This document shows, piece after piece, positions 4,914-24,978 of a stretch of 64,000 nt of DNA (its first letter is position 1; the number at the start of each line of letters is the position of its first letter). The stretch lies in NCBI RefSeq assembly GCF_011050055.1, contig NZ_DRGM01000167.1:1-64000 (forward strand). Direction: 5' to 3'. The notes under the pieces were generated by a model that saw only the letters and a program-made list of their open reading frames with translations, had not been told where the DNA came from and did not search any database. The position numbers and the translations under genes are program-made. This stretch comes from Pseudoalteromonas prydzensis (GTDB lineage Bacteria > Pseudomonadota > Gammaproteobacteria > Enterobacterales > Alteromonadaceae).

Positions 4914-5001
4914 TATTGTTTCCTTATCAAACTTGCTAGCATTGGCTGTAAAGCAAGCGATTTAATTTAACCACGGCTCGCCTATGAGTTGGTATATCTG
5001 T

Positions 5002-6141: not shown

Positions 6142-6218
6142 ATTATTTACCGTTTCACCTAAAAAATAGGTAGCTTGGAGCGCTATTTAGCACTCACAAG
6201 CTACCAAAAAAATTAAAA

Positions 6219-9002: not shown

Positions 9003-9054
9003 GTTTATTCCTCTATACAATTCTTGGTTATTTGTTCCATCTCACTTGGCACGA

Positions 9055-11949
9055 TTAAAAGCGGTAAGTTGCACCTGCGTAAAAACGACGACCACTGTAT
9101 GCATTTTGAATAAAGCGGTTTTTAGTATCGTCACCTAGATGCATATAAGTATCTGATTGAGTGAGGTTAATAACGGAAGCAGATAACACGAGAGCATCAG
9201 TCAAGTTATAACTTGCATTGATGTCTACCTGATCATAGGCTTCATTGTAATAGTTCATTTCCCATGAGGCGTTGTAGCCTTGAACCGTTGGACCGCGCTT
9301 ATTGTATGAGGCGCGAACACTGAATAAGTCATCTTCATAAAATACCGATAAATTCATCTGGTATTTAGAACTGCCGATCAAAGGTGACTCTCCCACCTTT
9401 TCGCCATCAAGCTCTACATTGGCTTGATTAGTGTTATTGCGGGTATAATTAGCATAAAGACCAAAGCCATTATCAAAGAAGTGCTGGATAAAAACTTCAG
9501 CACCTTCAGAAGAAGCATTCGTACCATTAGCAACAGTACTAAAATCCCGAACTGCAAAATTGTCGCCACTGACATTGACTTGCTCATCACCTGCGTTAGG
9601 TAAATTAAATGAAATGTCCGGTGCACTGCGGGTAACATCAATTATTAAAGGCACAACAAAGTTATCAACATCTTTTTTAAACAAGGCAATACCAAAGCCA
9701 GAGCCAGCTCCGTAGTAGTATTCTAAAGACATATCAAATTGGGTTGACTCAAATGGCGCTAGCTGGTTATTACCACCGGATCCTGTCCACCCTTCGCCAT
9801 CAATAATTGCATCAAAATTGTCTGCCGCTGAGCGATCCGTTGAGTATTCATTCGACGTGTACGTTAAAGTCTGAAACTGGCCTAAATCATCATAACCAGG
9901 ACGAGCCATGGTTTGTGATGCTGCTCCACGTAGTACCCAGTTGTCATCGATATCCCAGACTATATTAAAGCTGGGCAGCACCTTCGTTTCTGTACTCTCT
10001 TTTTCAATAAAAACAAAGTCTTCTACACGTTGTTGGTCGATTGGTAATTCATTGCCATTGTCGTCCTTCCAATCTAATCGGTAGGTGATTTTATCTGATG
10101 ATCCGGTGGTCGTTTTGGTGCGCACTACGCGTACACCCAAATTACCCCGTACTTGTGAAAAACGATAATCAGCTTGCATATAAGCCGCTGTAATTTCTTC
10201 TTCAACACTATAAACATAGTTAGGCTCTATACGCGTATAATGAACAAAGTTTTCATTCAGATGATCTTGGTATTTATGCCAGTTTACGGCTGGGAATAAG
10301 TTCGTATTAATTACATCAGACAAGTTAGCTAATGAATCTGAATAAATTAAATCTGCAATATCCGGTATGCCGCCATTTTTAGAGTAATCATCATCCAAAT
10401 CAATGGTGCCTTCAGCTTCACCTTTTGCTATATCAAAATCTGGGGAGAGATAAAAGCTGTTGCGAGTATCGCGATGAATTTTACCTTTGCGATATTTCGC
10501 ACCAAAATGCAACGTTTCAATTACGCCATAATCCACAAAATAGTCAAAATCAATCTGTCCGTAATCTTCTTCTTGAGTACCGGTCACAAAACTAGAATCG
10601 GTGGCTGTTACGTCGGGTGCACCACCAATGCCTGCGGCCAAGTTACTGATCATACTTGGGTCCATATAAGTGGTCATGCGCCCATCAGAAAAATCGTAAC
10701 CATAGTAAAGCGAGGATTCATTTGCATAATAAGCGGCACGATATTTTTCGGAAGGCCCACCTTCTGCTTCGGTATGGCCCAGCACTACTTTAACGTTGTA
10801 ATTTTCACCTTCGTATTTAGCATAAAAATCATATGTATCAGAGCTGGATTCTTCAATCGTATATTCACCATTAATACGTGGGATAGGAGAAACAGCCTGA
10901 GTGCCAGATGCACCAACAGAGTAGTCAATACCTGTAACAAACTGAGACTCTTCATCAACACGAACATCGGTCCAGAAATTATCGTTATTGTTCCATTCTG
11001 GGTATTCTAATTGATTTAAAATTGAGTCTTGCCCCAATTTAAAATTAAAATAATTAAAGCCAAGTTCTAAGTTACTGGTTGGTCGCCATTGAGTAGTAAA
11101 CTGGATCCCAGTTCGATTTCGCTCTTCGTTTAAGACTTCCTGAACCATACTTTGTGCAGCATAACCTTGCGCGCCGCCCTCAACCATTTGATTATCTTTC
11201 ATTTCAGAATAAAGATAATTTTTATTCATGATATTGATACGCGAGCTTTGTGAGCGATTAGTGCGGTCTTGTTTTGTATAACCCACTAAAACCCCAAAGT
11301 CTTCATCATCATTTTTCCATGAATAAATACCACTAAACTGAGGTTCATACTTATCAGTAATATCAGAATTACTGGTTTCAAAATTAATGATCCCAGAGTT
11401 TTTATCCATATCAAGTGGCTTGCGGCTATACAACAAGACCGTACCGCCAATTCCGCCCTCATCAAGGCGAGCTTCTGAAGATTTATATACTTCAACGCGT
11501 TGGATCATGGTTGCAGGTAATAATGCGTATGAAAATGAACGCGATGGTTCACCGGGGGACGATGCTATAAAATTGCCATTTAATTGTGTGAAGGTTAAGT
11601 CCGATGATAAACCTCGAATACTAACAGAGGCGCCCTCACCGCCATCCCGTTGTATAATGACCCCAGGCACACGTTGCAATGAGTCTGCCACATTCTTATC
11701 TGGGAACTTACCAATATCTTCTGCGGTAATAGCGTCAACGGTTGCATTAGACAACCGCTTAATCGCTAAGTTTTCAGCTGCAGAGGCACGAATCCCCCTG
11801 ACTTCAATTACTTCTAGGTCGCTCTCTTGGTCATTTTGTTCTTCTTGTGCGTATACGCTATTACAGCTTGTCATTACCGCTAGCAGCAGTGCGGATCTCT
11901 TAAATCGCCTTGAAATACCTGAAGCTCCCCGGCTGTTATTATTATTCAT
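9055..11949 (-). CDS. TonB-dependent outer-membrane receptor 1 (glycan importer)
   Basis: A 964-residue TonB-dependent receptor. After a signal peptide (about 1-34) comes a TonB box-like LEVIEVRG, then the plug domain (AEDIGKFPDKNVADSLQRVPGV, SIRGLSSD, DEGGIGGTV) and a long barrel ending in YSGRRFYAGATYRF with the terminal Phe used by BamA. It belongs to the Xanthomonas/Caulobacter-type carbohydrate receptors. It is the first gene of a minus-strand operon with the discoidin lipoprotein, GH99 enzyme, glycosylasparaginase and GNAT. GGAGAT five bases before the ATG supports the start. It is a paralogue of the receptor at 12665-15466: plugs are close, barrels have diverged. Its promoter at 12072-12138 carries the AraC-type site. 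Confidence 0.93.
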   Translation of the reverse strand: MNNNNSRGASGISRRFKRSALLLAVMTSCNSVYAQEEQNDQESDLEVIEVRGIRASAAENLAIKRLSNATVDAITAEDIGKFPDKNVADSLQRVPGVIIQRDGGEGASVSIRGLSSDLTFTQLNGNFIASSPGEPSRSFSYALLPATMIQRVEVYKSSEARLDEGGIGGTVLLYSRKPLDMDKNSGIINFETSNSDITDKYEPQFSGIYSWKNDDEDFGVLVGYTKQDRTNRSQSSRINIMNKNYLYSEMKDNQMVEGGAQGYAAQSMVQEVLNEERNRTGIQFTTQWRPTSNLELGFNYFNFKLGQDSILNQLEYPEWNNNDNFWTDVRVDEESQFVTGIDYSVGASGTQAVSPIPRINGEYTIEESSSDTYDFYAKYEGENYNVKVVLGHTEAEGGPSEKYRAAYYANESSLYYGYDFSDGRMTTYMDPSMISNLAAGIGGAPDVTATDSSFVTGTQEEDYGQIDFDYFVDYGVIETLHFGAKYRKGKIHRDTRNSFYLSPDFDIAKGEAEGTIDLDDDYSKNGGIPDIADLIYSDSLANLSDVINTNLFPAVNWHKYQDHLNENFVHYTRIEPNYVYSVEEEITAAYMQADYRFSQVRGNLGVRVVRTKTTTGSSDKITYRLDWKDDNGNELPIDQQRVEDFVFIEKESTETKVLPSFNIVWDIDDNWVLRGAASQTMARPGYDDLGQFQTLTYTSNEYSTDRSAADNFDAIIDGEGWTGSGGNNQLAPFESTQFDMSLEYYYGAGSGFGIALFKKDVDNFVVPLIIDVTRSAPDISFNLPNAGDEQVNVSGDNFAVRDFSTVANGTNASSEGAEVFIQHFFDNGFGLYANYTRNNTNQANVELDGEKVGESPLIGSSKYQMNLSVFYEDDLFSVRASYNKRGPTVQGYNASWEMNYYNEAYDQVDINASYNLTDALVLSASVINLTQSDTYMHLGDDTKNRFIQNAYSGRRFYAGATYRF

Positions 11950-12066
11950 GTCTATCTCCAGTTTTATTGTGCGTTTTTTGTTGTGCTTGTTATCTAACCC
12001 ATACAGCCTAGCAACTGATCAATCTTCCGATGGTTCAGAACAGGGTTAATAGATTGTTAAACTACT

Positions 12067-12168
12067 TTTCCAGAATAGGGTTCTGTTAAAGAAAGTGATA
12101 ATAGAAATTCGGTTGCTAGCAGGACAAAATCGGCGTTTAGCTTAAAAATAGATCCAATTAATAGTTAC
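12067..12168. repeat. 102-bp perfect direct repeat, copy A (receptor 1 promoter)
   Basis: Identical base for base to 15586-15687, 3519 bp away. It covers the predicted -10 box, both regulator half-sites and about 30 bp beyond. Homology continues more loosely on both sides, into the receptor leader and into cutC. Confidence 0.95.
12072..12138 (-). promoter_or_regulatory. Predicted AraC-type operator and promoter of TonB receptor 1
   Basis: Read on the minus strand: AAACGCCGATTTT, ten bases, CAACCGAATTT, then, 38 bases after the C of CAACC, a -10 box TATTCT preceded by CCC (12072-12077). The CCGA cores lie at 12130-12133 and 12109-12112, 21 bp apart, which is two helical turns. The proximal half-site abuts the weak -35 region, as in class II AraC activators. 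The same arrangement recurs at 15591-15657 and 18236-18303. The transcript would start near 12065, leaving a leader of about 115 nt. Confidence 0.65.
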
Positions 12169-12344
12169 TTCATTTATAGTGACAAACTCAAGAAGGAGTT
12201 AAGGTGACGTTTTATTAGGATAAAAAATCGCAGAAATAAAATTTAACCATTTGAATTTAATGAATATATTTTATTTTTATATTTTAAATTTGAATGTTAA
12301 ATAATTTATCGAAATTAGTCGTCTAAAGATTCTGGAATTGCACA

Positions 12345-12556
12345 ATAGGTAAAAATTTAGCAATCTGTTTAAATTCAGATGATCATATAAATTTAGCTAA
12401 TAATGTAAAAATTGTATTCAGTGCAGATGTAAGTTGAATCGAACTGTGAGGTGCAGCAATGTACCTTGTCGAAGTGAGTCAAAATTGAAACTGCAGCAAC
12501 AACATTGTCCTCAAACGGCGAGTTACTTGTAATAATAAGGCCAATCGCGAAGATTA
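12345..12556 (+). pseudogene. Decayed 5' fragment of cutC
   Basis: Reading from 12345 in the cutC frame gives IGKNLAICLNSDDHINLA then NNVKIVFSADVS, a clear copy of the intact CutC N-terminus (MGKNLEICLNADDHINLA...). The start codon has become ATA, and TGA stops replace Arg at 12435-12437 and Cys four codons later. A short deletion follows, and similarity fades after AATAAGGCCAATCGCG. It ends where receptor 2's downstream DNA begins. It is the scar of a tandem duplication of receptor-promoter-cutC5', not a working gene. The rest of 11950-12664 is the receptor 1 leader, its promoter and the terminator of receptor 2. Confidence 0.88.
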
Positions 12557-12605
12557 ATTGCAAAGCCAACTCTCCTTGTGTTTGCTTTGAGTATCAGAAA
12601 TATAA

Positions 12606-12636
12606 ATAAAACGGGCATTCTTTTTAAAGAATGCCC
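12606..12636 (-). terminator. Intrinsic terminator of TonB receptor 2
   Basis: GGGCATTCTTT (12613-12623) pairs with AAAGAATGCCC (12626-12636). On the minus strand it is followed by GTTTTATTTAT. It lies 28 nt after the receptor 2 stop and should isolate receptor 2 from the receptor 1 operon. Confidence 0.7.
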
Positions 12637-12664
12637 TGTCAGTTTATAATCTTAATTAAGCTAT

Positions 12665-15466
12665 TTAGAAATTATAATTAGCACCTAAATAAAACCTTCT
12701 TCCTGAATACTGATTATAGGTAAACCTATTCTCTTGTTTCCAATACCCTTCTTCGACTTCCTCAGTCAAATTAACCACAGAGGCTGTTAATGACAGTTGT
12801 TCAGTTAAATTATAAGCCGCGTTCAAGTCTAACTGGCCATAATCTTTCGTATACATGTTGTAACCTTGATGGATGCTATTAGCACGGTCATCTTTCCAGT
12901 TATATGAAGCCCTTACACTAAAATCATCATTTTCAAAATAAACGGACACATTGTATTGATGCTTTGCAGTTCCTGGGATTTCAGCATCTGTTTTTTGGCC
13001 ATTTGTTGATACTTGGCTAGTACTTGTATCAGTAAATGTATAATTTGCTAATACCCCAAAACCACTGTTGAAAGAGTGTTGAAAGAATAGCTCAACCCCT
13101 TTAGATTCAGCATCTCCACCAGCAACTTTGGTGTTCATTTCAACTTCAATCGGACCGTTACAACAATCATGTTCCCGTTCAACAATTTCAACAGCAGAGA
13201 TAGGCAAATTAGAAATATCTTTACTAAAGTATGTCGCTCCAAGTGCTGAACCTTCACCGTAATACCATTCAATACCAAGATCAAACTGATCTGACAGCAT
13301 AGGATCTAAGCCTGTGTTAACCGATGTACCAGTACCACGGCCAGTCCAAGAATCAGGTGAGTTGATATTGACCGGAGGACCGTATGACTCAGCTTGGCTC
13401 AAATCAGAATAACTAACACGTGACATAGCACGTGCTGCTGCAAAGCGAACAACGAGATCTTCAGTCGCATCCCAAGCAAGGTTAAAACTCGGCAAAAATT
13501 CACCATCATCACTCGAACGTTCATTTGCAGTGGTATCATTATTATCTTGGCCAACCACATCGTCATAGGTCAATGTACTTAAATCGGTATTTACATAACG
13601 TACCCCTAAGTTGCCGCGAAAATCTTGCCACTCAAAGTTACTTTGTGCATACACAGACCAAATATTTTCCTCTAGCGTGTAGGTCCCACCTAACGAAGGG
13701 ACAACGGTTTGCGTAAAATTATTCCGTAAATAGCTATCGAGTGCTGCAAAATCAAACGCTAAAAAGTTAAACGCTCCGGTATTCCCTGCACTGTTATCAA
13801 CCACAGTGTCACTGACTAGCGATTCTGGATCAGGATGAAAATCAGGATTATGGAACCATTCACTGCCAGACAAGTAGCCACGGTAACCACCATTGTCGGC
13901 AATACCATCATCCCAGCGGAAATCGTTTTTAATACCTTTAATTTCGTGGCTACGGTATTTCGCACCGACAAAGAAAGTAGTGAAAATACCTGTATCGATA
14001 TCAAATTGCAGATCAGCTTGTACATAATCTTCAGTATCTTTATTTTCTGATGAATAAGAATCAAACCAATCATAATATTGATATGCTTGTTTATCCGTGG
14101 CTAAGTCTGTGGAAACTTCATAACTGGGTTTACCATCCACTGTTGACCAGAACCAGCTATTTACAGACCCCTGACGAGCATCAATATTCGCGTAGGTTTC
14201 ACGTGACGTCCCGCCTTCTGCCTCAGTATGACCTAGTTTTAAAGTGGCAGTAAATAAGTCCCCATAATATTTGGCTTCAAAATCAAATGTATCAGATTTA
14301 GACTCCCCGACTCTTTCTCTGCCTGTTAGCTGAGGTGACAATAAGCCTCTCCGAACGGCCACACCATTATTAACATCGGCATCCCCCCAGTTATTATCAT
14401 TCAATAAACCATTATCTGCATTACCATAGGCAACAACGGTATCTCCGTCTAGAACAACGCCATAATATGGGTTATGGTTATCATTCCACTCTGCAAACAA
14501 TACGCTCTGAGAAGATGAGTTATAATCCAGTTTTGCACCAAAATAGTTGAGATTTAAATCGAGTTTATCTGTTGGCATCCATTGAATAGCCACTTGGTAA
14601 CCATCCCGAGTGCGATCTTCTGTTGAGTTACCGGTACTCATTGCACGTGGAGCCCAGACATTGTTGTAAACTTCCCCCGTCGCTTGATCGACAATCGCAG
14701 GACGCTCTGCCCCCTCCACAGTATCTGAATGGAAACGCCAGTGTGAAGCATTGTTGGTAATACTAGTTACTGTTTTATCTTGACGAGTAAATCCAGCTAA
14801 CATCGCGAAGTTTTCATCTGAATTTTTCCAAGAATACAGCACATTCACTTGTGGTTTAATATCTTCAGACACATCATCATAGGTTGCTTCAAGGCTTATT
14901 GCGCCAGAATTGGCTTCCATCTCTAACGGCTTTCGAGTGTGTAATATAACAGTACCGCCGATACCACCTTCATCTATGCGAGCTTCTGCGCTTTTGTAAA
15001 CTTCCACACTGCTGATCATACTTGAAGGCAACAAGGTATAATTAAAACTACGCGTTGGAACACCAGCACCGGATGAAGCAATATAATTACCGTTTAGTTG
15101 GGTCAAGGTCCAATCGGGTGAGGTACCTCGAATACTGACTCGGCTACCTTCACCACCGTCACGATCAATCAATACCCCCGACACGCGTTGTAGTGAATCA
15201 GCGACGTTCTTATCTGGAAATTTACCAATATCTTCTGCGGTGATTGCATCCACCGTTGCTGCAGAAAGGCGCTTAATTGCTAAGTTTTCCGCTGTTGAAG
15301 AACGGATCCCCCTAACTTCAATCACTTCCAAGTCACTTTGTTGTGCTGCTTGATTTGCTTGTGCATACGCACCATTACAACTTGCCATAACCGCCAACAA
15401 CAATGCAGACTTATTAAATCGCCGTGTAAGGGCTGCAAATTCTCGACTCGTTTTATTATTGCTCAT
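12665..15466 (-). CDS. TonB-dependent outer-membrane receptor 2 (glycan importer)
   Basis: About 933 residues from MSNNKTSREF; AAGGAAA seven bases upstream picks this ATG over the one 20 codons earlier. Signal peptide ending near GAYAQA, TonB box-like LEVIEVRG, plug with AEDIGKFPDKNVADSLQRVSG and DEGGIGGTV, and a barrel ending YSGRRFYLGANYNF. It is a paralogue of receptor 1: nearly the same plug, quite different extracellular-loop sequences, suggesting that the pair splits related glycans or chain lengths. It is transcribed alone, divergently from cutC, and closed by its own terminator. Its promoter region (15586-15687) is identical over 102 bp to that of receptor 1. Confidence 0.93.
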   Translation of the reverse strand: MSNNKTSREFAALTRRFNKSALLLAVMASCNGAYAQANQAAQQSDLEVIEVRGIRSSTAENLAIKRLSAATVDAITAEDIGKFPDKNVADSLQRVSGVLIDRDGGEGSRVSIRGTSPDWTLTQLNGNYIASSGAGVPTRSFNYTLLPSSMISSVEVYKSAEARIDEGGIGGTVILHTRKPLEMEANSGAISLEATYDDVSEDIKPQVNVLYSWKNSDENFAMLAGFTRQDKTVTSITNNASHWRFHSDTVEGAERPAIVDQATGEVYNNVWAPRAMSTGNSTEDRTRDGYQVAIQWMPTDKLDLNLNYFGAKLDYNSSSQSVLFAEWNDNHNPYYGVVLDGDTVVAYGNADNGLLNDNNWGDADVNNGVAVRRGLLSPQLTGRERVGESKSDTFDFEAKYYGDLFTATLKLGHTEAEGGTSRETYANIDARQGSVNSWFWSTVDGKPSYEVSTDLATDKQAYQYYDWFDSYSSENKDTEDYVQADLQFDIDTGIFTTFFVGAKYRSHEIKGIKNDFRWDDGIADNGGYRGYLSGSEWFHNPDFHPDPESLVSDTVVDNSAGNTGAFNFLAFDFAALDSYLRNNFTQTVVPSLGGTYTLEENIWSVYAQSNFEWQDFRGNLGVRYVNTDLSTLTYDDVVGQDNNDTTANERSSDDGEFLPSFNLAWDATEDLVVRFAAARAMSRVSYSDLSQAESYGPPVNINSPDSWTGRGTGTSVNTGLDPMLSDQFDLGIEWYYGEGSALGATYFSKDISNLPISAVEIVEREHDCCNGPIEVEMNTKVAGGDAESKGVELFFQHSFNSGFGVLANYTFTDTSTSQVSTNGQKTDAEIPGTAKHQYNVSVYFENDDFSVRASYNWKDDRANSIHQGYNMYTKDYGQLDLNAAYNLTEQLSLTASVVNLTEEVEEGYWKQENRFTYNQYSGRRFYLGANYNF

Positions 15467-15585
15467 GCCAATTTCCTTTATTATTGTGTGTGCTTGGTTA
15501 TATTTATTCACATTAAAGCCCTTCACAAAACGAATCTGTAATACTCAGATCATTTCGCAGAGGGTTAATGGCCTGTTAAAGTGCA

Positions 15586-15687
15586 TTTCCAGAATAGGGT
15601 TCTGTTAAAGAAAGTGATAATAGAAATTCGGTTGCTAGCAGGACAAAATCGGCGTTTAGCTTAAAAATAGATCCAATTAATAGTTAC
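15586..15687. repeat. 102-bp perfect direct repeat, copy B (receptor 2 promoter)
   Basis: Identical to 12067-12168. Here it lies between receptor 2 (-) and intact cutC (+), which is the ancestral arrangement; copy A lies between receptor 1 and the cutC fragment. Confidence 0.95.
15591..15657 (-). promoter_or_regulatory. Predicted AraC-type operator and promoter of TonB receptor 2
   Basis: Same sequence and spacing as the receptor 1 promoter: CCGA cores at 15649-15652 and 15628-15631 (minus strand), -10 box TATTCT at 15591-15596. Because cutC lies divergently about 200 bp away, the site might also influence cutC and the kinase gene. Confidence 0.65.
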
Positions 15688-15864
15688 CTCATTTATAGTG
15701 ACAAACTCAAGAGGAAGTTAATCTGACGTTTTTTTAGTATGAAAAATACGCAGCAATAAAATTTAACCCACTGAATTTAAAGGGTGTATTTTATTATTGT
15801 AGTAACGACCTTAATATTAAATAATTTATTGAAATTAGTCGCCTTAAGATTATGGAATTACGCA

Positions 15865-16605
15865 ATGGGTAAAAATCTAGAGATCTGTTTGAATGCAGAT
15901 GATCATATAAATTTAGCTAATAATGTAAAAACTGCATTCAGTGCAGGTGCAAGTCGCATCGAGCTGTGCGGTGCAATGCATCTTGCTGGACTAAGTCCAA
16001 CGGCAGATGAAATTGAAACTGCAGCAAAAGCATTGCCCTCAAACGGTGAGTTACTGGTGATGATAAGGCCGACCGCGGATCACTTTAATGTTGACGCTGC
16101 GCTACTCAAAACTATGACCAGCCAGATAACCCGCGCTGCACAATTAGGTGCCACTGGGGTTGTTTTTGGGGCAATTGCTGGCAATGAGCTTGATGTGGCA
16201 GCTACATCTACACTGGTTGAGTGCGCGAAACACTATCAGCTTGCCAGCACATTTCATCGCGCCTTCGATTGTATTGCAGATAGTCGCAATGCACTTCACA
16301 TTTTAAGCGAGCTCGGGGTTGATCGTATTCTTACCAATGGCACACCCTGGACTGATAATAAAGATGTAATGCAAGGGCTTAACCAGTTGCAAAGCATCAT
16401 TACTGACGCTAAAGGGCAAATCGAGATCGTGATTGGCGGTGGCGTAACCACAAACAACGCGCCTATTTTGTGGCAGCTAGGCAGCGAAAATTTAATATCA
16501 TTGCATGCCTACTCAGGCGTACTTAATAGTGATGGTTTAGTGGACCCTTTATTAATTAACTCAATTTTACAAAAATCAACTCACGAGCAGACTAAACATG
16601 ACTAA
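15865..16605 (+). CDS. cutC: CutC family TIM-barrel protein
   Basis: A 246-residue CutC homologue starting at MGKNLEIC (the frame is open from 15784, but homology begins here; the ribosome site is weak). Family features: ASRIELCG near residue 30, GVVFGAI mid-protein, TFHRAFD, LGVDRILTNG, and IVIGGGV near the end. CutC was named for copper tolerance in E. coli, but that role is doubtful and its reaction is unknown. Here it is bound to sugar genes: it overlaps the amino-sugar kinase by 8 nt and is divergent from a glycan receptor. That argues for a part in carbohydrate metabolism. A decayed copy of its 5' end lies at 12345-12556. Confidence 0.88.
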   Translation: MGKNLEICLNADDHINLANNVKTAFSAGASRIELCGAMHLAGLSPTADEIETAAKALPSNGELLVMIRPTADHFNVDAALLKTMTSQITRAAQLGATGVVFGAIAGNELDVAATSTLVECAKHYQLASTFHRAFDCIADSRNALHILSELGVDRILTNGTPWTDNKDVMQGLNQLQSIITDAKGQIEIVIGGGVTTNNAPILWQLGSENLISLHAYSGVLNSDGLVDPLLINSILQKSTHEQTKHD

Positions 16606-17473
16606 GCAATCTCACTTCCCTTTGTTTTTAGGTATCGATGGTGGTGGCACTAAATGCCAAGTTAGGCTTGAAAATGACCGCGGAGTGTTACTTGCACAAG
16701 CGCAAAGTGGCCCCGCAAATATTGCTACCTCAGTAACCGTTGCGCAACAATCAATCCTTGCTGCAACAATGCAAGCATTACAAAAAGCTAATTTACCAGC
16801 CAGCGCACTCAGCACAATTAATGCCTATGCGGGCCTCGCTGGTGCAGGGATCAATGGCGCAAAAAACAAAATGGCACAATGGCAGCATCCATTTGCACAA
16901 TTTAATTTCTCAACTGACTTACACATTGCCTGCCAAGGTGCCCATGGCAATAACAGTGGTGCAATTATCATATTAGGCACTGGCTTTTGTGCAGGCGCGA
17001 TAAAAGGTAACACTATCATTGAATTAGGTGGTCATGGTTTACTCTTAAGTGATGGTGCAAGCGGAGGTTGGATTGGTTTAACTTTATTTAGGTATGCGCT
17101 GGAAGTCTTAGACGGAATGTCACCTTCAAGTCCATTAATTAAATGCTTACTAACCGAGTTGGGTTGTGACAATAGCAGTTCACTTACTGAGCTTGCACTC
17201 AACGCAAAACCGGCCTACTTTGCAAGCTTTGCTCCTTTAGTTTTCAACATGCAGGATGATCCCGTAGCACAAACGATATTAGCTCAAGCAGCTAAATTTA
17301 TTACCCGCTATATCGAACATTTAGCCCAACTTGGCTATCAAAGTATTACCTTAATGGGCGGCACCGCAAAAACAATTACACCCTGGTTATCAAGCAAAGC
17401 ACAAGGTTATCTGTGTGATGCACAGTATTCGCCTGAGCAAGGGGCAATTCAATTAGCAAAAATGCACCTTTAA
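16598..17473 (+). CDS. BadF/BcrA-type amino-sugar kinase (glucosamine or GlcNAc kinase)
   Basis: A 291-residue ASKHA-fold kinase. The phosphate-1 motif is FLGIDGGGTKCQV at residues 9-21, the phosphate-2 loop is IILGTGFCAGA, and ELGGHGLLLSDGASGGWIG carries the sugar/phosphate contacts; MGGTAKTITPWL near the C-terminus is the adenosine loop. Length and motifs match the Vibrio glucosamine kinase GspK and related GlcNAc kinases. It overlaps cutC by 8 nt (translational coupling). With a glycosylasparaginase in the locus, the natural substrate would be GlcNAc or GlcN freed from N-glycans. Its stop overlaps the stop of the convergent araC-type gene by 4 nt, with no terminator visible between them. 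Confidence 0.85.
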   Translation: MTKQSHFPLFLGIDGGGTKCQVRLENDRGVLLAQAQSGPANIATSVTVAQQSILAATMQALQKANLPASALSTINAYAGLAGAGINGAKNKMAQWQHPFAQFNFSTDLHIACQGAHGNNSGAIIILGTGFCAGAIKGNTIIELGGHGLLLSDGASGGWIGLTLFRYALEVLDGMSPSSPLIKCLLTELGCDNSSSLTELALNAKPAYFASFAPLVFNMQDDPVAQTILAQAAKFITRYIEHLAQLGYQSITLMGGTAKTITPWLSSKAQGYLCDAQYSPEQGAIQLAKMHL

Positions 17474-18195
17474 CGCTCAATATGGGCACGCATTTGTGAT
17501 GGGATTTCACCAAATAAGCGCCTGAATTGCTTGCTAAAATAGCTAGGTTCAGCAAAACCACATTGATAGGCTATTTGTGAAATCGGTAAACGCGTTTCAA
17601 CCAGTAGTTTACGGGCATTTTCGAGTCGTATCTCATTAATAAATTGATTCGGGGTTTTCGCTAAATGCTTTTTAAAACGCCGCTCTAATGCACTAACAGA
17701 TAAATGCGCAAGTTCAGCTAACTCTTCAACGCAGATATTTCTATGGTAGTGTTCGCGAATATAATTAACCGGACCTTCAATTGCTCTGACATGAGAAAGC
17801 GCCTTGGAGGTTTTCTGTAAATGGCGTGTGATGCCATAAGTACCAAGTATATTGCCATTATCATCACAAATCATTTTTTTAGACGTTGAAAACCAGGCTA
17901 ATTCACCATTTGATGTCTGATTTAATTCCAATCTATCCGTAACAATATAGCCATTCATAACGCGTTTATCGTCATTCACATATTGAAATGCAAGGTGCTT
18001 GGAAGAAAAATCAAAATCGGTTTTAAGCAAGATATGGTCTAACACCTTGTACCCTTGATGTTCAACAAAGTGCTGATTAGCATATAAAATTCTACTTTCA
18101 GTATCTTTTACCCAAAACAAGATATCTGGTAATAAATCAAATGCAGCAATCAATTGCTTTACACCCGCTTTATCGATAATCGTTTCTACATCCAT
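17470..18195 (-). CDS. PAS-AraC family transcriptional regulator
   Basis: A 241-residue one-component regulator. Residues about 15-130 form a PAS-type sensor (LLPDILFWVKDTESRILYAN, ending in GNILGTYGITRHLQ); residues about 140-240 are an AraC/XylS DNA-binding domain with both helix-turn-helix motifs (VEELAELAHLSVSALERRFK and ISQIAYQCGFAEPSYFSKQF). PAS input instead of the usual cupin suggests that a small sugar or redox ligand is sensed in the cytoplasm. It is divergent from the Gfo/Idh operon, and the paired CCGA half-sites lie 41-80 bp upstream of its own start, so it probably regulates itself, that operon and both TonB receptors. AraC activators bind direct repeats about 21 bp apart, exactly the spacing seen. 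Confidence 0.9.
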   Translation of the reverse strand: MDVETIIDKAGVKQLIAAFDLLPDILFWVKDTESRILYANQHFVEHQGYKVLDHILLKTDFDFSSKHLAFQYVNDDKRVMNGYIVTDRLELNQTSNGELAWFSTSKKMICDDNGNILGTYGITRHLQKTSKALSHVRAIEGPVNYIREHYHRNICVEELAELAHLSVSALERRFKKHLAKTPNQFINEIRLENARKLLVETRLPISQIAYQCGFAEPSYFSKQFRRLFGEIPSQMRAHIER

Positions 18196-18235
18196 ACTAT
18201 AAAACTCTGTAAACCTGAATTTGTTAATAATATAT

Positions 18236-18303
18236 AAAACGCCGATTTTATTGCATTGTCAACCGAATTTATATTAGCCCTAGTGCTAGGCATTCCCTAT
18301 TAT
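18236..18303 (+). promoter_or_regulatory. Predicted AraC-type operator and promoter of the 3-keto-glycoside operon
   Basis: AAAACGCCGATTTT, ten bases, CAACCGAATTT, then CCC-TATTAT with the -10 box at 18298-18303, 38 bases after the C of CAACC. CCGA cores are at 18242-18245 and 18263-18266, 21 bp apart. Every spacing equals that of the two receptor promoters, although the intervening sequence differs. The -35 position (TAGCCC) is poor, as expected of an activator-dependent promoter. Confidence 0.65.
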
Positions 18304-18357
18304 TAATAACATGATATTAACCAACTTCAGTTGTCAGTTACTGAAATGGAACTTTTA

Positions 18358-19533
18358 ATGAATAAAACAAAGGTCCGGATGGGCATGGTCGGTGGTGCAC
18401 AAGGCGCGTTTATTGGAGCGATTCATCGCATTGCAGCGCGTTTAGATGGCTTGATTGAGTTAGTCGCGGGCTCTTTTAGTTCAGATCCAACACGCAGCCA
18501 AGCAACTGCGGCAATGCTGGGGATAAATCCAACACGCTGTTATGACAGTTATCAGCAAATGTTTATTGAAGAAGCTAAGTTACCAGCAGATCAACGCATT
18601 GATTTTGTCGCAATTGTTACACCTAATCATTTGCACTTTCCCATCGCAACGCTTGCCATTGAAAGTGGTTTTCACGTTTTATCAGATAAACCAGCGACAT
18701 TAAATTTACAAGAAGCGTTGTTATTAGCGCAAACCTTGCACTCAAGTGATTGCTTATATGGCTTAACACACACTTACACGGGTTACCCGATGATCAAAGA
18801 AGCGCGTCATCGTATTGCGCAAGGTGAACTTGGTGCTATTCGTAAAGTGGTTGTGGAATACAGTCAAGGTTGGCTTTCGAGCAATGAAGACGAGCAAGCT
18901 AAACAAGCAAATTGGCGTTTAGATCCGCAAAAAGCAGGTATTAGCTGCTGCATAGCCGATATCGGTGTCCATGCTGCAAACTTAGCAGAATATGTAAGTG
19001 ACTTAGAAATTACGGCGTTATGCGCAGATTTAAATCACGTTGTACCAGGCAGAACCCTCGATGATGATGGCACTGTTTTACTGCGCTTTAACAGCGGTTG
19101 TAAAGGCGTATTAATGGCAAGTCAAGTTGCATTAGGGGAAGAGAATAATCTTAATCTGCGTATTTACGGCGATAAAGCCAGCATCGAATGGTCGCAAATG
19201 GAACCCAATAGTTTATGGCTAAAAAGTCATAATGCGCCAACGACGCTACTACGAGCAGGAGTCGCACTAAAAAGTAACGCTGCTCAAGACGCTTTACGGG
19301 CTCCCGCCGGTCACCCAGAAGGTTACCTTGAAGCATTTGCCAACATTTATGTCAATTTTGCTAAGCAGATCAACGCGAAAAAAGCAGGTGAGTTAGCAAG
19401 CAACGCTGACTATGACGTACCGGGTATTAAAGAAGCAATTCGTGGCATGGCATTTATTGAAAATGCAGTCGAGGCTGCAAGCCAAGACACTAAATGGCAC
19501 CCATTTAAAATTGGATCAGCAAACTATGAATAA
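18358..19533 (+). CDS. Gfo/Idh/MocA family oxidoreductase
   Basis: A 391-residue NAD(P)-dependent dehydrogenase. The Rossmann dinucleotide loop is GMVGGAQGAFIGAIHR at residues 8-23; VAIVTPNHLHFPIA and VLSDKPATLNLQEA are the typical second half of the cofactor domain, with the catalytic-area DKPA motif in place of EKPx; DIGVHAANLAEYV supplies the usual Asp and His of the active site. The ATG at 18358 follows TGGA by 7 nt; the frame is open 9 codons earlier. First gene of the operon, overlapping the next by 8 nt. Family members oxidise sugars at C3 or reduce 3-keto sugars, which is the most likely job here. No signal peptide, so cytoplasmic. Confidence 0.88.
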   Translation: MNKTKVRMGMVGGAQGAFIGAIHRIAARLDGLIELVAGSFSSDPTRSQATAAMLGINPTRCYDSYQQMFIEEAKLPADQRIDFVAIVTPNHLHFPIATLAIESGFHVLSDKPATLNLQEALLLAQTLHSSDCLYGLTHTYTGYPMIKEARHRIAQGELGAIRKVVVEYSQGWLSSNEDEQAKQANWRLDPQKAGISCCIADIGVHAANLAEYVSDLEITALCADLNHVVPGRTLDDDGTVLLRFNSGCKGVLMASQVALGEENNLNLRIYGDKASIEWSQMEPNSLWLKSHNAPTTLLRAGVALKSNAAQDALRAPAGHPEGYLEAFANIYVNFAKQINAKKAGELASNADYDVPGIKEAIRGMAFIENAVEAASQDTKWHPFKIGSANYE

Positions 19534-20578
19534 AATAAAAGGCCCGGCAATATTTTTAGCGCAGTTCATCAGTGATGAGGCCCCTTTCAACAACTTTACA
19601 AGTATTTGTCAGTGGGCTGCAAGTTTAGGCTATAAAGCAATTCAACTGCCCACTTCAAACCCAGAGTTGTTTGATTTAGAAAAAGCCGCCCAAAGCCAAG
19701 CTTACTGCGATGAGGTGACTGGTATTGCAGCACAAGCAGGGCTTACAATTTCAGAGTTATCAACGCATTTACAAGGTCAATTAGTTGCGGTACACCCAGC
19801 TTACGATGAAATGTTTGACAACTTTGCGCCCGAGCAATTACGCGGCAACCCAACAGGTAGAACCCAGTGGGCAATCGAGCAACTGATGATGGCAGCCAAA
19901 GCCAGTAAACAATTAGGGTTGAATACTCATGTCACTTTCTCAGGCGCTTTGCTTTGGCATACTTTCTACCCTTGGCCACAACGACCAGCAGGCCTCGTCG
20001 AAGCCGGATTTGCAGAGCTCGCAAAACGTTGGCTGCCAATACTCGATTACTTTGATGAAATGGGGGTGGATGTTTGTTACGAGCTTCATCCTGGTGAAGA
20101 TCTCCATGATGGCATTACATTTGAGCGCTTTTTAGCCGCGACAAATAACCATCCACGGGTAAATATTCTTTATGATCCCAGTCATTTTGTACTACAGCAG
20201 CTTGATTACCTTACATTTATTGATATTTACCAGCAACGCATAAAAGCATTCCACGTCAAAGATGCTGAGTTTAATCAAAATGGTCGCAGTGGTGTCTATG
20301 GTGGCTATCAAAATTGGCAAGACCGCCCTGGTAGGTTCCGCTCATTAGGCGATGGGCAAATTGATTTCAAAAGTATCTTTAGCAAATTAACCCAATATGG
20401 GTTTGACGGTTGGGCCGTTTTAGAGTGGGAGTGCTGTATCAAACACCCTGAAGACGGCGCACGCGAAGGCGCTAAATTTATTCAAGATCATCTGATCCGC
20501 CCGACAGCTAAGGCATTCGATGACTTTACTGCGATGGCAACAAATGATGATCGCAATAAGCGGATATTAGGCATTTAA
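19526..20578 (+). CDS. Cytoplasmic sugar isomerase/epimerase-like TIM barrel
   Basis: A 350-residue xylose-isomerase-like TIM-barrel protein. The metal-binding residues typical of the family are placed as expected: CYELHPGED (Glu), ILYDPSHFVLQQLD (Asp/His), KAFHVKDAEF (His) and WAVLEWECCIKHPEDGA (Glu). Start at MNKIKGPA, overlapping the Gfo/Idh stop by 8 nt. Relatives beside Gfo/Idh genes epimerise or isomerise keto-sugars in inositol and 3-keto-glucose pathways. The substrate cannot be fixed from sequence; here it likely processes the product of the 3-keto route. No signal peptide. Confidence 0.85.
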   Translation: MNKIKGPAIFLAQFISDEAPFNNFTSICQWAASLGYKAIQLPTSNPELFDLEKAAQSQAYCDEVTGIAAQAGLTISELSTHLQGQLVAVHPAYDEMFDNFAPEQLRGNPTGRTQWAIEQLMMAAKASKQLGLNTHVTFSGALLWHTFYPWPQRPAGLVEAGFAELAKRWLPILDYFDEMGVDVCYELHPGEDLHDGITFERFLAATNNHPRVNILYDPSHFVLQQLDYLTFIDIYQQRIKAFHVKDAEFNQNGRSGVYGGYQNWQDRPGRFRSLGDGQIDFKSIFSKLTQYGFDGWAVLEWECCIKHPEDGAREGAKFIQDHLIRPTAKAFDDFTAMATNDDRNKRILGI

Positions 20579-20596
20579 TAAACAGGATCACACACA

Positions 20597-21814
20597 ATGA
20601 ATAATAACAATAATCAGCGTATTATTTTTCGGCTTTGCTGCATCGCACTCATTGTTACTTCAATGACGTTTGCAATAAGAGCCGGTATTTTAGGGCAATT
20701 AGGCGAGCAGTTTGGCCTTACTGGCGCTCAGTTAGGCTGGGTTAATGCGATGGCATTTCTCGGTTTTCCAGTTGCGACTATGCTCGGTGGCATCATTTAC
20801 AATGCCATTGGCGCGAAGAAACTAGTGGCATTGGCATTTGTTTGTCACTTAGCAGGACTGCTTTTAACTATTATGGCCGAAGGTTTTTGGGGACTGCTTA
20901 TCTCAACCTTTTTAATCGGCTTTGCAAATGGCTCTGTGGAAGCGGGATGTAATCCGCTTATTGCCCAAATGTACCCGAAAAACACCACCACCATGTTAAA
21001 CCGCTTTCATGTATGGTTCCCTGGCGGCATTGTAATTGGTGCATTGGCTTCAAACACAATGACCTCATTTGGATTTAGTTGGCAATGGCAAGTCGCGTTA
21101 ATTCTAATTCCAACCATTATTTATGGCCTGATGATAGTTAAAGCGCAGTTCCCACAATTTGATGCTCAACAAAATTCAACGACCAGTAACTTAAAGCACT
21201 TACTTTCGCCTTTATATCTGTTTTTAATTATTTGCATGACCCTAACCGCAGTTACCGAGTTTGGTACTCAGCAGTGGATCGAACAAATCCTCGGCTCTTC
21301 TGGTGCCTCGCCTATGGTTATTCTCGCGCTGATCACCGGATTAATGGCGCTGGGTCGCTTCTTTGCAGGGCCTATTGTCCATCGTTTTAGCCCGTCAGGC
21401 GTACTACTAGGTTCAGCGGTGTTTTCAACCATTGGCATATTTTTAATGAGCCAAGCGCAAGGTAATGCAATTTACTTTGCCGCCGCGCTGTTCGCCATTG
21501 GTGTTACCTATTTTTGGCCGACCATGATTGGCTGTGTTGCGGAATACACGCCAAAAACCGGCGCGTTAGGAATGTCTCTGATCGGTGGCGCAGGGATGTT
21601 TGCAATGAGTTTGTGGAACCCAGTTATAGGCTACTGGATTGACAGTGCCAAGCAACAAGCTCAACAAACACATGTCTCAGCAGAGCAAATCGAAGTGGTC
21701 GCAGGACAAGCAGTTTTACAAAACCTATTGATCTTTCCAATAGTACTGATTGTGGTATTTATTGGGCTGCACCTGTTTATAACAAAACATAAAAATGTAG
21801 AAAAATACGTTTAA
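20597..21814 (+). CDS. MFS sugar transporter (inner membrane)
   Basis: A 405-residue major facilitator with about 12 hydrophobic segments, e.g. IALIVTSMTFAIRAGIL near the start and LIFPIVLIVVFIGLHLF at the end. It has the MFS half-repeat pattern (GFPVATMLGGIIYNAIGAKK, the loop-2 motif area; GRFFAGPIVHRF in the second half). It resembles the FucP-like sugar:H+ symporter group more than drug exporters, which suits its place between sugar-enzyme genes. Begins 18 nt after the isomerase stop. Likely cargo is the monosaccharide or keto-sugar made in the periplasm by the downstream DUF1080/GMC enzymes. Confidence 0.85.
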   Translation: MNNNNNQRIIFRLCCIALIVTSMTFAIRAGILGQLGEQFGLTGAQLGWVNAMAFLGFPVATMLGGIIYNAIGAKKLVALAFVCHLAGLLLTIMAEGFWGLLISTFLIGFANGSVEAGCNPLIAQMYPKNTTTMLNRFHVWFPGGIVIGALASNTMTSFGFSWQWQVALILIPTIIYGLMIVKAQFPQFDAQQNSTTSNLKHLLSPLYLFLIICMTLTAVTEFGTQQWIEQILGSSGASPMVILALITGLMALGRFFAGPIVHRFSPSGVLLGSAVFSTIGIFLMSQAQGNAIYFAAALFAIGVTYFWPTMIGCVAEYTPKTGALGMSLIGGAGMFAMSLWNPVIGYWIDSAKQQAQQTHVSAEQIEVVAGQAVLQNLLIFPIVLIVVFIGLHLFITKHKNVEKYV

Positions 21815-21851: not shown

Positions 21852-22544
21852 ATGCTTAAATCAATCTCGATGTTATCAATTGCACTGACGTTTAGCAGTA
21901 CTGCATTTGCCAAAACAGCTGATAACCAGCTAAGCAAAGAAGAGCAAAAAGCAGGCTGGCAATTACTGTTTAACGGCCAAGACATGTCTCATTGGCGCAA
22001 TTTTAAAAGCGATACGCTCAGCTCAAAATGGACAATTGACGACGGCGCTATGTTACTGACCCAAGGCGGTGGTGACATACTAACTAAAAAGAGCTATGTG
22101 AATTTTGACTTAAAACTTGATTGGAAAATCAGTGAAGTTGGTAATAGTGGCATTTTTGTTCTAGCCGATGAATTGGGCAAGTATATTTACTCTCACGCGC
22201 CTGAAATCCAAATTATTGATAATGAACGCCATTCAGACACCAAAATCGACTCTCATTTATCAGGGTCAATTTATGATTTGCTAACGGCGCCTACCTCAGC
22301 TCACAAACCAGCAATGCAATGGAATACTGTGCGCATCAAGATGCTAAACAACCATTTACAGGTTTGGCAAAATGGGGTTAGCACTGCCAGTATTGTTGTT
22401 GGCAGCAGTACGTGGAATACCTTGGTTAAAAACAGTAAATTTGCTACATGGTCCAACTTTGCTACCGCAAAACAAGGCCGTATTGGCCTGCAAGATCATG
22501 GCGACAAAGTTTGGTTCAAAAACATAAAAATTAAGGAGCTGTAA
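21852..22544 (+). CDS. Periplasmic DUF1080 protein, 3-keto-glycoside hydrolase family
   Basis: A 230-residue protein with a clean signal peptide (about 1-20, ending STAFAK) and one PF06439/DUF1080 jelly-roll domain: GWQLLFNGQDMSHW at about 36-49, NSGIFVLAD, PEIQIIDNE with the likely acidic catalytic residues, WNTVRIKMLNNHLQVWQNG, and the closing GRIGLQDHGDKVWFKNI. Family members have been shown to cleave glycosides whose sugar was first oxidised at C3. It sits directly before the GMC oxidoreductase (2 nt) that would make such 3-keto substrates. GGGGTA before the ATG supports the start. Substrate inferred, not proved. Confidence 0.87.
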   Translation: MLKSISMLSIALTFSSTAFAKTADNQLSKEEQKAGWQLLFNGQDMSHWRNFKSDTLSSKWTIDDGAMLLTQGGGDILTKKSYVNFDLKLDWKISEVGNSGIFVLADELGKYIYSHAPEIQIIDNERHSDTKIDSHLSGSIYDLLTAPTSAHKPAMQWNTVRIKMLNNHLQVWQNGVSTASIVVGSSTWNTLVKNSKFATWSNFATAKQGRIGLQDHGDKVWFKNIKIKEL

Positions 22545-24226: not shown

Positions 24227-24978
24227 TGAACACCAACGATCGTATGGATTCATACAAATATATTTCTGGTATGACACGCCGAGAATCACTTAAGTGGCTG
24301 GGCCTACTTGCTGCAGGTTCAACTGTCGGTTTAACCGCCGGTTGCACTAAAGTACTTGAAGATACACCAACAAGTTCGGGGCATTGGCCTGATATTGATA
24401 TCGCCCCCATTACAGCAAAAGGCTATGGCACCGATCCTAACTTAGTCATTCCACCGTCGTCGCCTTGGCCGTTAACTTTAACCCAGTCGCAATTGACTTT
24501 AGTGGCTATTTTATCCGATCTATTGGTGCCAAAAGAAGGCGATATTCCCAGTGCATCTGAGCTTAATGTGCCAAGTGTTATTGATGAATGGGTCAGCGCG
24601 CCCTATCATGGCCAACAAAAAGATCGTGTTACTATTTTACATGCATTAGCGTGGATTGATGACGAATCTAAAATCCGCTTTAATAAACTTTACAGTGCCC
24701 TCAATAAAGCTGAGCAACACGCTATATTGGATGATATTGCTTATTATAATGACGACACACCAGAACAATTTCAACGTATTGCCAAAGCATTCAAGCGCTT
24801 TAAAGAATTAGTTTTGGCTGCGTTCTTTTGTACGCCTCAAGGCTGTAAAGATATCGGCTATTTGGGCAATGTGCCGATTGCGGGTGATTATCCAGGCCCT
24901 TCAACCGAAGCTAAAGCCCATTTAGAGAGTATTTTAGATGAGCTTGGCTTAAGTGAATATGCTTATAAAGATGAGTGA
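24226..24978 (+). CDS. Gluconate 2-dehydrogenase subunit 3 family protein, Tat-exported small subunit
   Basis: A 250-residue small subunit of a GMC dehydrogenase. The twin-arginine motif TRRESLKWLG (residues 17-26) is followed by a hydrophobic stretch and TAGCTK, a possible lipobox. The family core follows (LTLVAILSDLLVPKEGDIPSA at about 88-108), then a helical region and FFCTPQGCKDIGYLGN. It starts inside the GMC stop (TAATG), so the two are made together. In known systems this subunit is needed for export and maturation of the catalytic subunit. A terminator follows 40 nt later. Confidence 0.87.
   Translation: MNTNDRMDSYKYISGMTRRESLKWLGLLAAGSTVGLTAGCTKVLEDTPTSSGHWPDIDIAPITAKGYGTDPNLVIPPSSPWPLTLTQSQLTLVAILSDLLVPKEGDIPSASELNVPSVIDEWVSAPYHGQQKDRVTILHALAWIDDESKIRFNKLYSALNKAEQHAILDDIAYYNDDTPEQFQRIAKAFKRFKELVLAAFFCTPQGCKDIGYLGNVPIAGDYPGPSTEAKAHLESILDELGLSEYAYKDE

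What the first reader, a model, noticed from the sequence alone, without database searches (positions are those of the whole stretch)
12072..18303. Shared 21-bp-spaced CCGA operator and matching -10 box define a PAS-AraC glycan regulon
Three promoters (TonB receptor 1, TonB receptor 2, Gfo/Idh operon) carry CGCCGATTTT, ten unconserved bases, CAACCGAATTT, and a CCC-TATTMT -10 box starting exactly 38 bases after the C of CAACC. The two CCGA cores are 21 bp apart in all three. The third promoter is not part of the duplicated DNA and its intervening sequence differs, so the match cannot be explained by recent copying. Direct half-sites two turns apart, with the proximal one touching a poor -35 box, are what AraC-family class II activators use. 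The PAS-AraC gene is next to the third site. This links import, outer processing and the 3-keto route in one regulon.
Basis: partly seen in the sequence, partly recalled or inferred. Interest (0 to 1): 0.86.

Follow-up and report, generated by a model that had tools for sequence, protein, structure and literature searches.

The report
Marine sugar-oxidation regulon and its operator
A short paired DNA signal in front of two sugar-uptake genes and a sugar-oxidation operon of a marine Pseudoalteromonas bacterium is, on strong comparative evidence, the landing site of the neighbouring AraC-type regulator, and the same pairing of signal and regulator recurs in many marine relatives.

Summary
Confirmed. 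Three CCGAWTTT pairs exactly 21 bp apart stand in the window and no more were found in the 5.13 Mb genome; the -10 hexamer lies at the stated 38 bases in all three. Of 96 regulator genes of 46-100% identity, 74 carry the pair (at most 2 mismatches) in the divergent sense, 0 in the other; shuffles average 0.02. A refined pattern gives 9 hits in 394 genomes, 0 for its reversed control; all 9 lie at regulator loci, two in another family. In 26 of 26 named Pseudoalteromonas loci a site precedes Gfo/Idh, and in 24 of 24 where the receptor gene was seen a site precedes it. Corrections: the spacer holds a conserved second box, each half-site reading CCGAWTTT-N-T-NN-YA; the -10 offset is 27-28 bp in relatives. 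Against: 22 of 96 lack a clear pair. Best reading: class II-type activator site of an undescribed PAS-AraC regulon joining receptor uptake, glycan trimming and 3-keto-sugar catabolism. Binding, activation, ligand and substrate are untested.

The parts
12105..12135 (-). Operator 1, upstream of TonB receptor 1 (repeat 1 CCGATTTTGTCCTG 12120-12133, repeat 2 CCGAATTTCTATTA 12099-12112)
12072..12077 (-). -10 hexamer TATTCT of promoter 1, preceded by CCC; hexamer at the -35 place (17 bp spacer) is TATCAC
   Evidence: promoter function inferred
15624..15654 (-). Operator 2, upstream of TonB receptor 2 (repeat 1 15639-15652, repeat 2 15618-15631)
15591..15596 (-). -10 hexamer TATTCT of promoter 2
   Evidence: promoter function inferred
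18240..18270 (+). Operator 3, between the PAS-AraC gene and the Gfo/Idh operon (repeat 1 CCGATTTTATTGCA 18242-18255, repeat 2 CCGAATTTATATTA 18263-18276)
18298..18303 (+). -10 hexamer TATTAT of promoter 3; hexamer at the -35 place is TAGCCC
   Evidence: promoter function inferred
17470..18195 (-). PAS-AraC regulator gene (241 aa, PAS_4 + HTH_18)
   Evidence: Pfam; DNA-binding domain matches XylR and AraC chains in the PDB
9055..11949 (-). TonB-dependent receptor 1, first gene behind operator 1
   Evidence: TIGR01782 above cut-off
6219..9020 (-). Lipoprotein-like protein with F5/8 type C (discoidin) domains
   Evidence: lipobox-like N terminus seen by eye in the translation
5002..6141 (-). GH99 family enzyme, nearest solved relative 4acz endo-alpha-mannosidase
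3954..4913 (-). Glycosylasparaginase relative, Tat-like signal by eye
   Evidence: 3ljq, E 2.8e-129
12665..15526 (-). TonB-dependent receptor 2, behind operator 2 (translation start uncertain)
15784..16605 (+). CutC family protein, divergent from receptor 2
16598..17473 (+). BadF-type kinase, below the NagK_SO3507 cut-off (246.6 against 370 bits)
18331..19533 (+). Gfo/Idh/MocA oxidoreductase, first gene behind operator 3 (translation start uncertain)
19412..20578 (+). AP_endonuc_2 (sugar isomerase-like) protein
20597..21814 (+). MFS transporter
21852..22544 (+). 3-keto-disaccharide hydrolase family protein (PF06439), secretion signal by eye
22547..24226 (+). GMC oxidoreductase, relative of FAD glucose and fructose dehydrogenase large subunits
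24226..24978 (+). Gluconate 2-dehydrogenase subunit 3 family protein with a Tat-like signal by eye
25060..25926 (+). Second AP_endonuc_2 protein, last gene of the same direction in the 3-keto operon

Best explanation
Each element is a bipartite operator for the adjacent PAS-AraC protein. Two directly repeated half-sites, each CCGAWTTT-N-T-NN-YA, are read by the two helix-turn-helix motifs of one AraC-type domain, and the half-sites lie 21 bp (two helical turns) apart so that two subunits bind in tandem on one DNA face. The downstream half-site overlaps the edge of a poor -35 element, so bound regulator would recruit RNA polymerase to the -10 box 27-28 bp beyond the second core. The PAS domain would sense a cytoplasmic intermediate of the 3-keto pathway and switch on together a receptor/lipoprotein/GH99/glycosylasparaginase operon, a second receptor, and the Gfo/Idh-isomerase-MFS-3-keto-hydrolase-GMC operon. 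Shown by sequence: the sites, their spacing, their link to the regulator gene, and recurring target genes. Inferred: binding, activation, ligand, substrate. The confidence given is for operator ownership plus activation; the ligand clause alone stands at about 0.3.
For: Three sites found in the genome, all at this locus. 34 of 37 site-bearing family genomes have a regulator hit (95 of 295 overall), p = 5.6e-16, and 33 of 48 exact sites lie within 5 kb of it. Of 96 regulator genes of 46-100% identity, 74 have the pair at 21 bp with at most 2 mismatches in the divergent sense, 0 in the other sense; of 12 other spacings tried, 16 and 18-20 bp give 0 and the rest 1-13 (22 bp: 13); shuffles mean 0.02, maximum 1. 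Refined pattern: 9 hits in 394 order genomes, reversed control 0; all 9 at a regulator locus, two in a second family. 26 of 26 named Pseudoalteromonas loci have a site before Gfo, and 24 of 24 in which the receptor gene was seen have one before it. In other genera sites stand before Gfo operons, 3-keto hydrolase operons or TonB receptors, some of these far from the regulator gene. The half-sites share one grammar. 38 columns of the regulator are invariant in 42 sequences, 18 of them in the PAS half.
Against: No binding or transcript data. 22 of 96 regulator genes lack a pair at 2 mismatches or fewer and 12 at 3 or fewer; one of the 12, L084, has a 1-mismatch site missed because its locus is cut by a contig end, while at least four of the 3-mismatch matches (L086, L087, L202, L245) look out of register. 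The short pattern is not specific by itself: its reversed control gave 30 scattered hits in the 295 genomes, by my count of the table, against 48 for the pattern. Three site-bearing genomes lack the regulator at E <= 1e-30 (G036, G247, G264). In G284 the receptor-side sites point away from the nearest receptor. The -10 offset varies. One site lies between the regulator gene and the operon, so autoregulation cannot be told apart from operon control.
Confidence: 0.82

Rival explanations
1. The PAS-AraC protein owns the operator but mainly represses: bound at the -35 it blocks polymerase, and the ligand releases it.
For: Repeat 2 overlaps the -35 place in all three promoters, which would also suit a repressor. 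The site lies 44-156 bp from the regulator start (by tblastn; 57 sites), so it could repress the regulator's own promoter.
Against: The -35 hexamers are poor (TATCAC, TAGCCC), so the promoters look activator-dependent, and direct repeats two turns apart are those of AraC-type activators (AraC recalled; MtlR in PMC4514859, passages).
Confidence: 0.13
2. The operator belongs to another, perhaps global, regulator and stands near the PAS-AraC gene only because the locus is inherited as a block.
For: Sites far from the regulator gene exist, and three site-bearing genomes have no regulator hit at E <= 1e-30.
Against: A global regulator would have sites elsewhere: three were found in the genome, all here. 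The 9 refined-pattern hits in 394 genomes fall only at regulator loci, one of them (G067, L126) a locus where the 3-keto hydrolase operon and not Gfo was seen. Of the three exceptions, the G264 site lacks the CG that precedes the other sites and G036's match is its near copy (its flank was not read); G247 lacks the regulator in a locus that has it in G207 of the same genus.
Confidence: 0.04
3. The likeness of the three promoters is left over from copying.
For: Promoters 1 and 2 do lie in duplicated DNA, and in P. prydzensis L004 the two copies are near-identical over about 240 bp, beyond the operator, which suggests copy-to-copy homogenisation.
Against: No blastn self-match (E <= 1e-5) joins promoter 3 to the other two. 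In 24 of 24 named loci where both genes were seen, receptor and Gfo promoters share the operator, and across other genera the sequence between operator and -10 carries almost no information while the operator is kept.
Confidence: 0.01

Closest known systems
araBAD I1-I2 operator of E. coli AraC (recalled) and XylR-type AraC DNA-binding domains
   Same: Two directly repeated half-sites about two helical turns apart, the proximal one at the -35 (recalled for AraC); the DNA-binding domain matches XylR (4fe4) and AraC (2k9s) in the PDB.
   Different: Recognition sequence CCGAWTTT-N-T-NN-YA; a PAS domain in place of the AraC or XylR sensor domains; no distant looping site was looked for.
MtlR / PmtlE of Pseudomonas fluorescens (PMC4514859, passages)
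   Same: AraC/XylS activator; two similar 15-bp blocks holding direct repeats (-72 to -58 and -50 to -36, so 22 bp apart); EMSA and footprint are said to confirm that the first repeat begins the binding site.
   Different: 22 bp rather than 21, the site placed upstream of the -35; mannitol promoter.
CUT loci of Xanthomonas and aquatic bacteria (PMC1790865, passages)
   Same: TonB receptor, inner-membrane transporter, enzyme and regulator in one carbohydrate locus; the abstract names Pseudoalteromonas and Colwellia among bacteria sharing such receptors and loci.
   Different: The passages seen describe sucrose, xylose and maltose loci, not this regulator or motif.
lacABC + DUF1080 lactose route of Caulobacter (PMC9007349, passages)
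   Same: lacABC dehydrogenase, PF06439 hydrolase, transporter, two epimerases and a reductase in one cluster for 3-keto sugars.
   Different: No AraC regulator there (the term occurs 0 times in the main text); no N-glycan genes in the passages seen.

Membership tests
AraC/XylS transcription regulators | C-terminal domain with two helix-turn-helix motifs (HTH_18 / HTH_AraC) | tested here: met
   HTH_18 1.8e-26 at residues 159-237 and HTH_AraC 2.5e-18; PDB matches to XylR and AraC domains
AraC/XylS transcription regulators | Direct-repeat half-sites about two turns apart | tested here: met
   21 bp in 74 of 96 regulator upstreams at <= 2 mismatches, 0 in the opposite sense
RhaS (named AraC-family activator) | NCBIfam equivalog score | tested here: not met
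   best NCBIfam match is RhaS at 78.6 bits against a cut-off of 288, over the DNA-binding half only
Class II (-35-overlapping) AraC-type activation | Proximal half-site touching or overlapping the -35, with a -10 at matching distance | tested here: met
   Repeat 2 overlaps the -35 place by two bases in all three promoters; -10-like hexamer peak at 27-28 bp in 57 sites
Class II (-35-overlapping) AraC-type activation | Regulator binds and activates transcription | not testable with these tools
   needs EMSA or footprint and transcript mapping
3-keto-glycoside catabolic cluster (lacABC/DUF1080 type) | GMC dehydrogenase with subunit 3, PF06439 hydrolase, reductase, epimerases/isomerases, transporter | tested here: met
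   no cytochrome c (LacB) gene among those scanned here; reductase role of Gfo/Idh inferred
3-keto-glycoside catabolic cluster (lacABC/DUF1080 type) | Oxidation at C3 of a named substrate | not testable with these tools
   enzyme assay needed
N-glycan degradation locus | Glycosylasparaginase and glycan-trimming enzymes behind an uptake receptor | tested here: inconclusive
   glycosylasparaginase and GH99 relatives present; no releasing enzyme (PNGase or endoglycosidase) seen among the genes scanned
CUT locus | TonB receptor, inner-membrane transporter, enzymes and regulator together | tested here: met

The most novel reading that the evidence does not exclude
The PAS domain is a cytoplasmic sensor for a C3-oxidised sugar or its Gfo/Idh product, and this regulon defines a widespread, so far undescribed marine route in which sugars trimmed from N-glycans and other glycans are oxidised at C3 in the periplasm, imported by the MFS transporter and reduced in the cytoplasm, with receptor cassettes for different glycans swapped beneath one conserved promoter.
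Probability: 0.3. Interest if true: 0.72.

Novelty: new member of a known kind. Interest (0 to 1): 0.55.

Why it matters
It gives a testable operator and a candidate regulator for a pathway whose regulator gene (46% identity or more) is in 90 of 295 genomes sampled from the window's family (the family is Alteromonadaceae in GTDB, recalled), a group of marine glycan degraders. It also offers a DNA signature for finding which uptake receptors in each species feed the 3-keto route, including receptors far from the regulator gene. The protein has 579 homologues at E <= 1e-40; in the 120 listed, names where given are generic, apart from one automatic 'RhaS' that the NCBIfam cut-off does not bear out.

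Tried and rejected
Chance origin: rejected. Copying as the sole cause: rejected for promoter 3; for promoters 1 and 2 their mutual identity is not used as evidence, because copies in L004 are alike well beyond the operator. Extra sites in the genome: none with the refined pattern at <= 3 mismatches. Position-weight scan of 34 regulator genes in 33 loci from other genera and of one Pseudoalteromonas paralogue: its null windows include true sites, so its p values have a floor; I rely instead. The 62-gene count (58 with a site) is not a random sample, since I picked some loci because they had sites, and one named locus, probably L029, fell out by the length filter; one search takes all 96 genes at 46% identity or more (10 of its 106 matches, at 32-37%, left out). 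The 22-bp signal (27 of 62) I judge mostly a register shift within the T run at 2 mismatches; a real 22-bp pair is seen in L135. The 10 left-out paralogues were a specificity test: no match to CG plus the pair within 4 mismatches in 300 bp upstream of any. Ten flanking genes in other genera gave mostly functions with no evident link to glycans, one TonB receptor and one AraC-type gene: no substrate clue. Literature; among the papers listed, judged by title and start of abstract, none is on this regulator or motif. Lists were capped (15 of 24; 10 of 124; 10 of 95), one search found none, and the library holds open-licence PMC papers only. PMC2996990 passages concern araC as a dehydratase gene; PMC9522356 has 0 occurrences of glycosylasparaginase or GH99 in its main text. 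Odds: the best explanation went from 0.85 to 0.82 on re-check only because the listed odds summed to more than 1.
Full report
WHAT IS THERE. The window is part of a 5.13 Mb genome, a Pseudoalteromonas by its relatives: its closest named match over the locus is P. prydzensis (regulator 96% identical). The three elements are as described: CGCCGATTTT-N10-CAACCGAATTT at 12105-12135 (-), 15624-15654 (-) and 18240-18270 (+), cores 21 bp apart, TATTCT/TATTCT/TATTAT starting exactly 38 bases after the C of CAACC and each preceded by CCC. The pattern gives 3 matches in the window against 0 in each of 100 shuffles, 3 in the whole genome against 0 for the reversed pattern, and about 0.015 expected by composition. 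A refined pattern with up to three mismatches adds none. The genome is 93.84% complete with 8.62% contamination.

GENES. Behind operator 1: a TonB receptor (TIGR01782), a lipoprotein-like protein with F5/8 type C domains, a GH99 enzyme (closest solved relative 4acz, an endo-alpha-mannosidase) and a glycosylasparaginase relative (3ljq, E 2.8e-129). Behind operator 2: a second TonB receptor. Behind operator 3: Gfo/Idh, AP_endonuc_2, MFS, PF06439 3-keto-disaccharide hydrolase, GMC oxidoreductase, gluconate-2-dehydrogenase subunit 3, and a second AP_endonuc_2. Between them: CutC, a BadF-type kinase below the NagK_SO3507 cut-off, and the PAS_4 + HTH_18 regulator. Signal sequences were judged by eye from translations. 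That the GMC subunit is exported with its Tat-signalled partner is recalled from fructose dehydrogenase-type complexes, not tested. Operon membership is inferred from order and direction.

DOES THE REGULATOR OWN THE SITE? In 295 family genomes the exact pair occurs in 37 and a regulator hit (E <= 1e-30) in 95; five of the 95 (G085, G113, G138, G158, G224) have only a 33-36% identical paralogue and none of these five has a site. 34 genomes have both, Fisher p = 5.6e-16 (computed with 95), and 33 of 48 sites lie within 5 kb of a regulator gene; the window's own site 1, at 5.3 kb, is not among the 33. The short pattern alone is not specific: by my count of the table the reversed control gave 30 scattered hits. 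I then took every one of the 96 regulator genes of 46-100% identity, the window's own among them, and read 400 bp upstream. With at most 2 mismatches, 74 of 96 have the pair at 21 bp in the divergent sense and 0 of 96 in the opposite sense. Of 12 other spacings, 16, 18, 19 and 20 bp give 0 and the rest 1-13, the largest at 22 bp. Shuffled upstreams average 0.02, maximum 1. By identity band: 8 of 8 (80% and above), 4 of 5 (60-79), 29 of 40 (55-59), 30 of 37 (50-54), 3 of 6 (46-49). At most 3 mismatches: 84 of 96, with 1 in the opposite sense, shuffles up to 3, much more noise at other spacings (up to 38), and at least four matches (L086, L087, L202, L245) that look out of register. One of the 12 misses, L084, has a 1-mismatch site lost to contig-end trimming.

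BLIND TEST. The refined pattern CGCCGAWTTTRTYNYAN6RCCGAWTT in 394 genomes of the order (37 or so of them from the window's own family, by the table) gave 9 hits and none for its reversed control. Five of the nine (G030, G038, G050, G573, G606) were compared by tblastn and all five flank a PAS-AraC/Gfo pair. The other four (G000, G018, G039, G067) lie within 2 kb of regulator genes already listed. Two hits, G573 and G606, are in a different family; a protein 61% identical, on a contig of the same length as G606's, is named from a Kangiellaceae MAG. The pattern was built from family sites, so only those two hits are wholly outside its training range.

TARGETS. In 26 of 26 named Pseudoalteromonas loci a site (at most 1 mismatch) stands 53-100 bp above the tblastn start of Gfo, and in 24 of 24 in which the receptor gene was seen one stands 89-258 bp above it (not seen in L013, L022). 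Elsewhere the site often precedes Gfo operons, but the 3-keto hydrolase-GMC-subunit 3 operon directly in L125, L126 and L151, a subunit 3-GMC-isomerase operon in L155, and TonB receptors far from the regulator in L153, L154, L156 and L158, 300-620 bp away. In L152 (G284) two tandem sites point away from the nearest receptor. Four of the 48 exact sites (G036, G050 second contig, G239, G264) look like chance: three lack the preceding CG and the fourth, G036, is a near copy of G264's match. In L157 (G247) the site remains where the regulator and the isomerase seen in G207 of the same genus are absent.

ANATOMY. Over 42 distinct sites from other genera and 47 distinct sequences from Pseudoalteromonas, all chosen to match the two cores with at most 2 mismatches, both repeats show the same grammar beyond the cores: repeat 1 ACGCCGAWTTTGTtNcAt, repeat 2 aACCGATTTTNTNNTANC, that is CCGAWTTT, one base, T, two bases, YA. 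The cores are conserved by selection of the set; the second box is not. Two boxes per half-site suit the two recognition helices of one AraC-type domain. The hexamer at the -35 place is TATCAC or TAGCCC, poor against TTGACA (recalled), and repeat 2 overlaps it by two bases. The -10 match is strongest at 28 bp after the second core in 57 sites (61%) and next at 27 bp (30%).

HOW IT PROBABLY WORKS. Two PAS-AraC subunits bind in tandem; the proximal one contacts polymerase at the -35, and the -10 lies at a fitting distance. Given the target genes, the PAS domain most likely reads a cytoplasmic 3-keto intermediate or its reduction product; 18 PAS-half columns are invariant in 42 sequences, the other 41 being 46-91% identical to the window's protein, which fits a common ligand. 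Receptor cassettes vary while core and operator stay: of the six named loci whose fetched span reaches the glycosylasparaginase gene, two have GH99 (L006, L007). The window's own receptor-1 cassette appears swapped: 3970-12411 is 92-93% identical to P. ostreae and P. rhizosphaerae while 14.9-26.5 kb is 77%, yet its promoter matches P. prydzensis (100% over the operator and on to the -10) rather than those species (86% and 94%).

RELATION TO KNOWN SYSTEMS. It behaves like araBAD I1-I2 (recalled) and MtlR/PmtlE (PMC4514859, passages), and its gene set resembles the Caulobacter lacABC/DUF1080 cluster (PMC9007349, passages and abstract) within a CUT-type locus (PMC1790865, passages). I found no paper on this regulator or motif among those listed. 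Verdict: a real regulon of a known kind, undescribed as far as these searches go; regulator-operator pairing very likely, activation likely, ligand and substrate open.

Noticed in passing
L176, L177, L178, L180 (upstream of paralogous regulators): Paralogous regulator genes (32-36% identity) stand beside paralogous Gfo/isomerase/MFS genes, lack the CCGAWTTT pair, and share by eye another upstream element resembling GTTACAWWTGCNGAWTTWRTTATA...GACTGAATTATTACAGAA, perhaps the operator of the sister regulator.
   Followed up: partly
window 3970-12411: Receptor 1, lipoprotein, GH99 and glycosylasparaginase cassette is 92-93% identical to P. ostreae / P. rhizosphaerae, 14.9-26.5 kb only 77%; the promoter is of P. 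prydzensis type. Looks like a cassette swapped beneath a resident promoter.
   Followed up: partly
window about 12380-12560: Decayed fragment of the start of cutC left by the tandem duplication of receptor and upstream DNA (by eye; duplication).
   Followed up: partly
L157 (G247), site near 9681: Operator retained where the PAS-AraC and isomerase genes seen in L129 (same genus) are absent: possible fossil site.
   Followed up: partly
L152 (G284), about 9754-9850: Two operators in tandem, 65 bp apart, pointing away from the nearest TonB receptor.
   Followed up: no
L129 and L157: Another AraC-type gene (about 400 aa, HTH_18) lies next (L157) or next but one (L129) downstream of the operator.
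   Followed up: no
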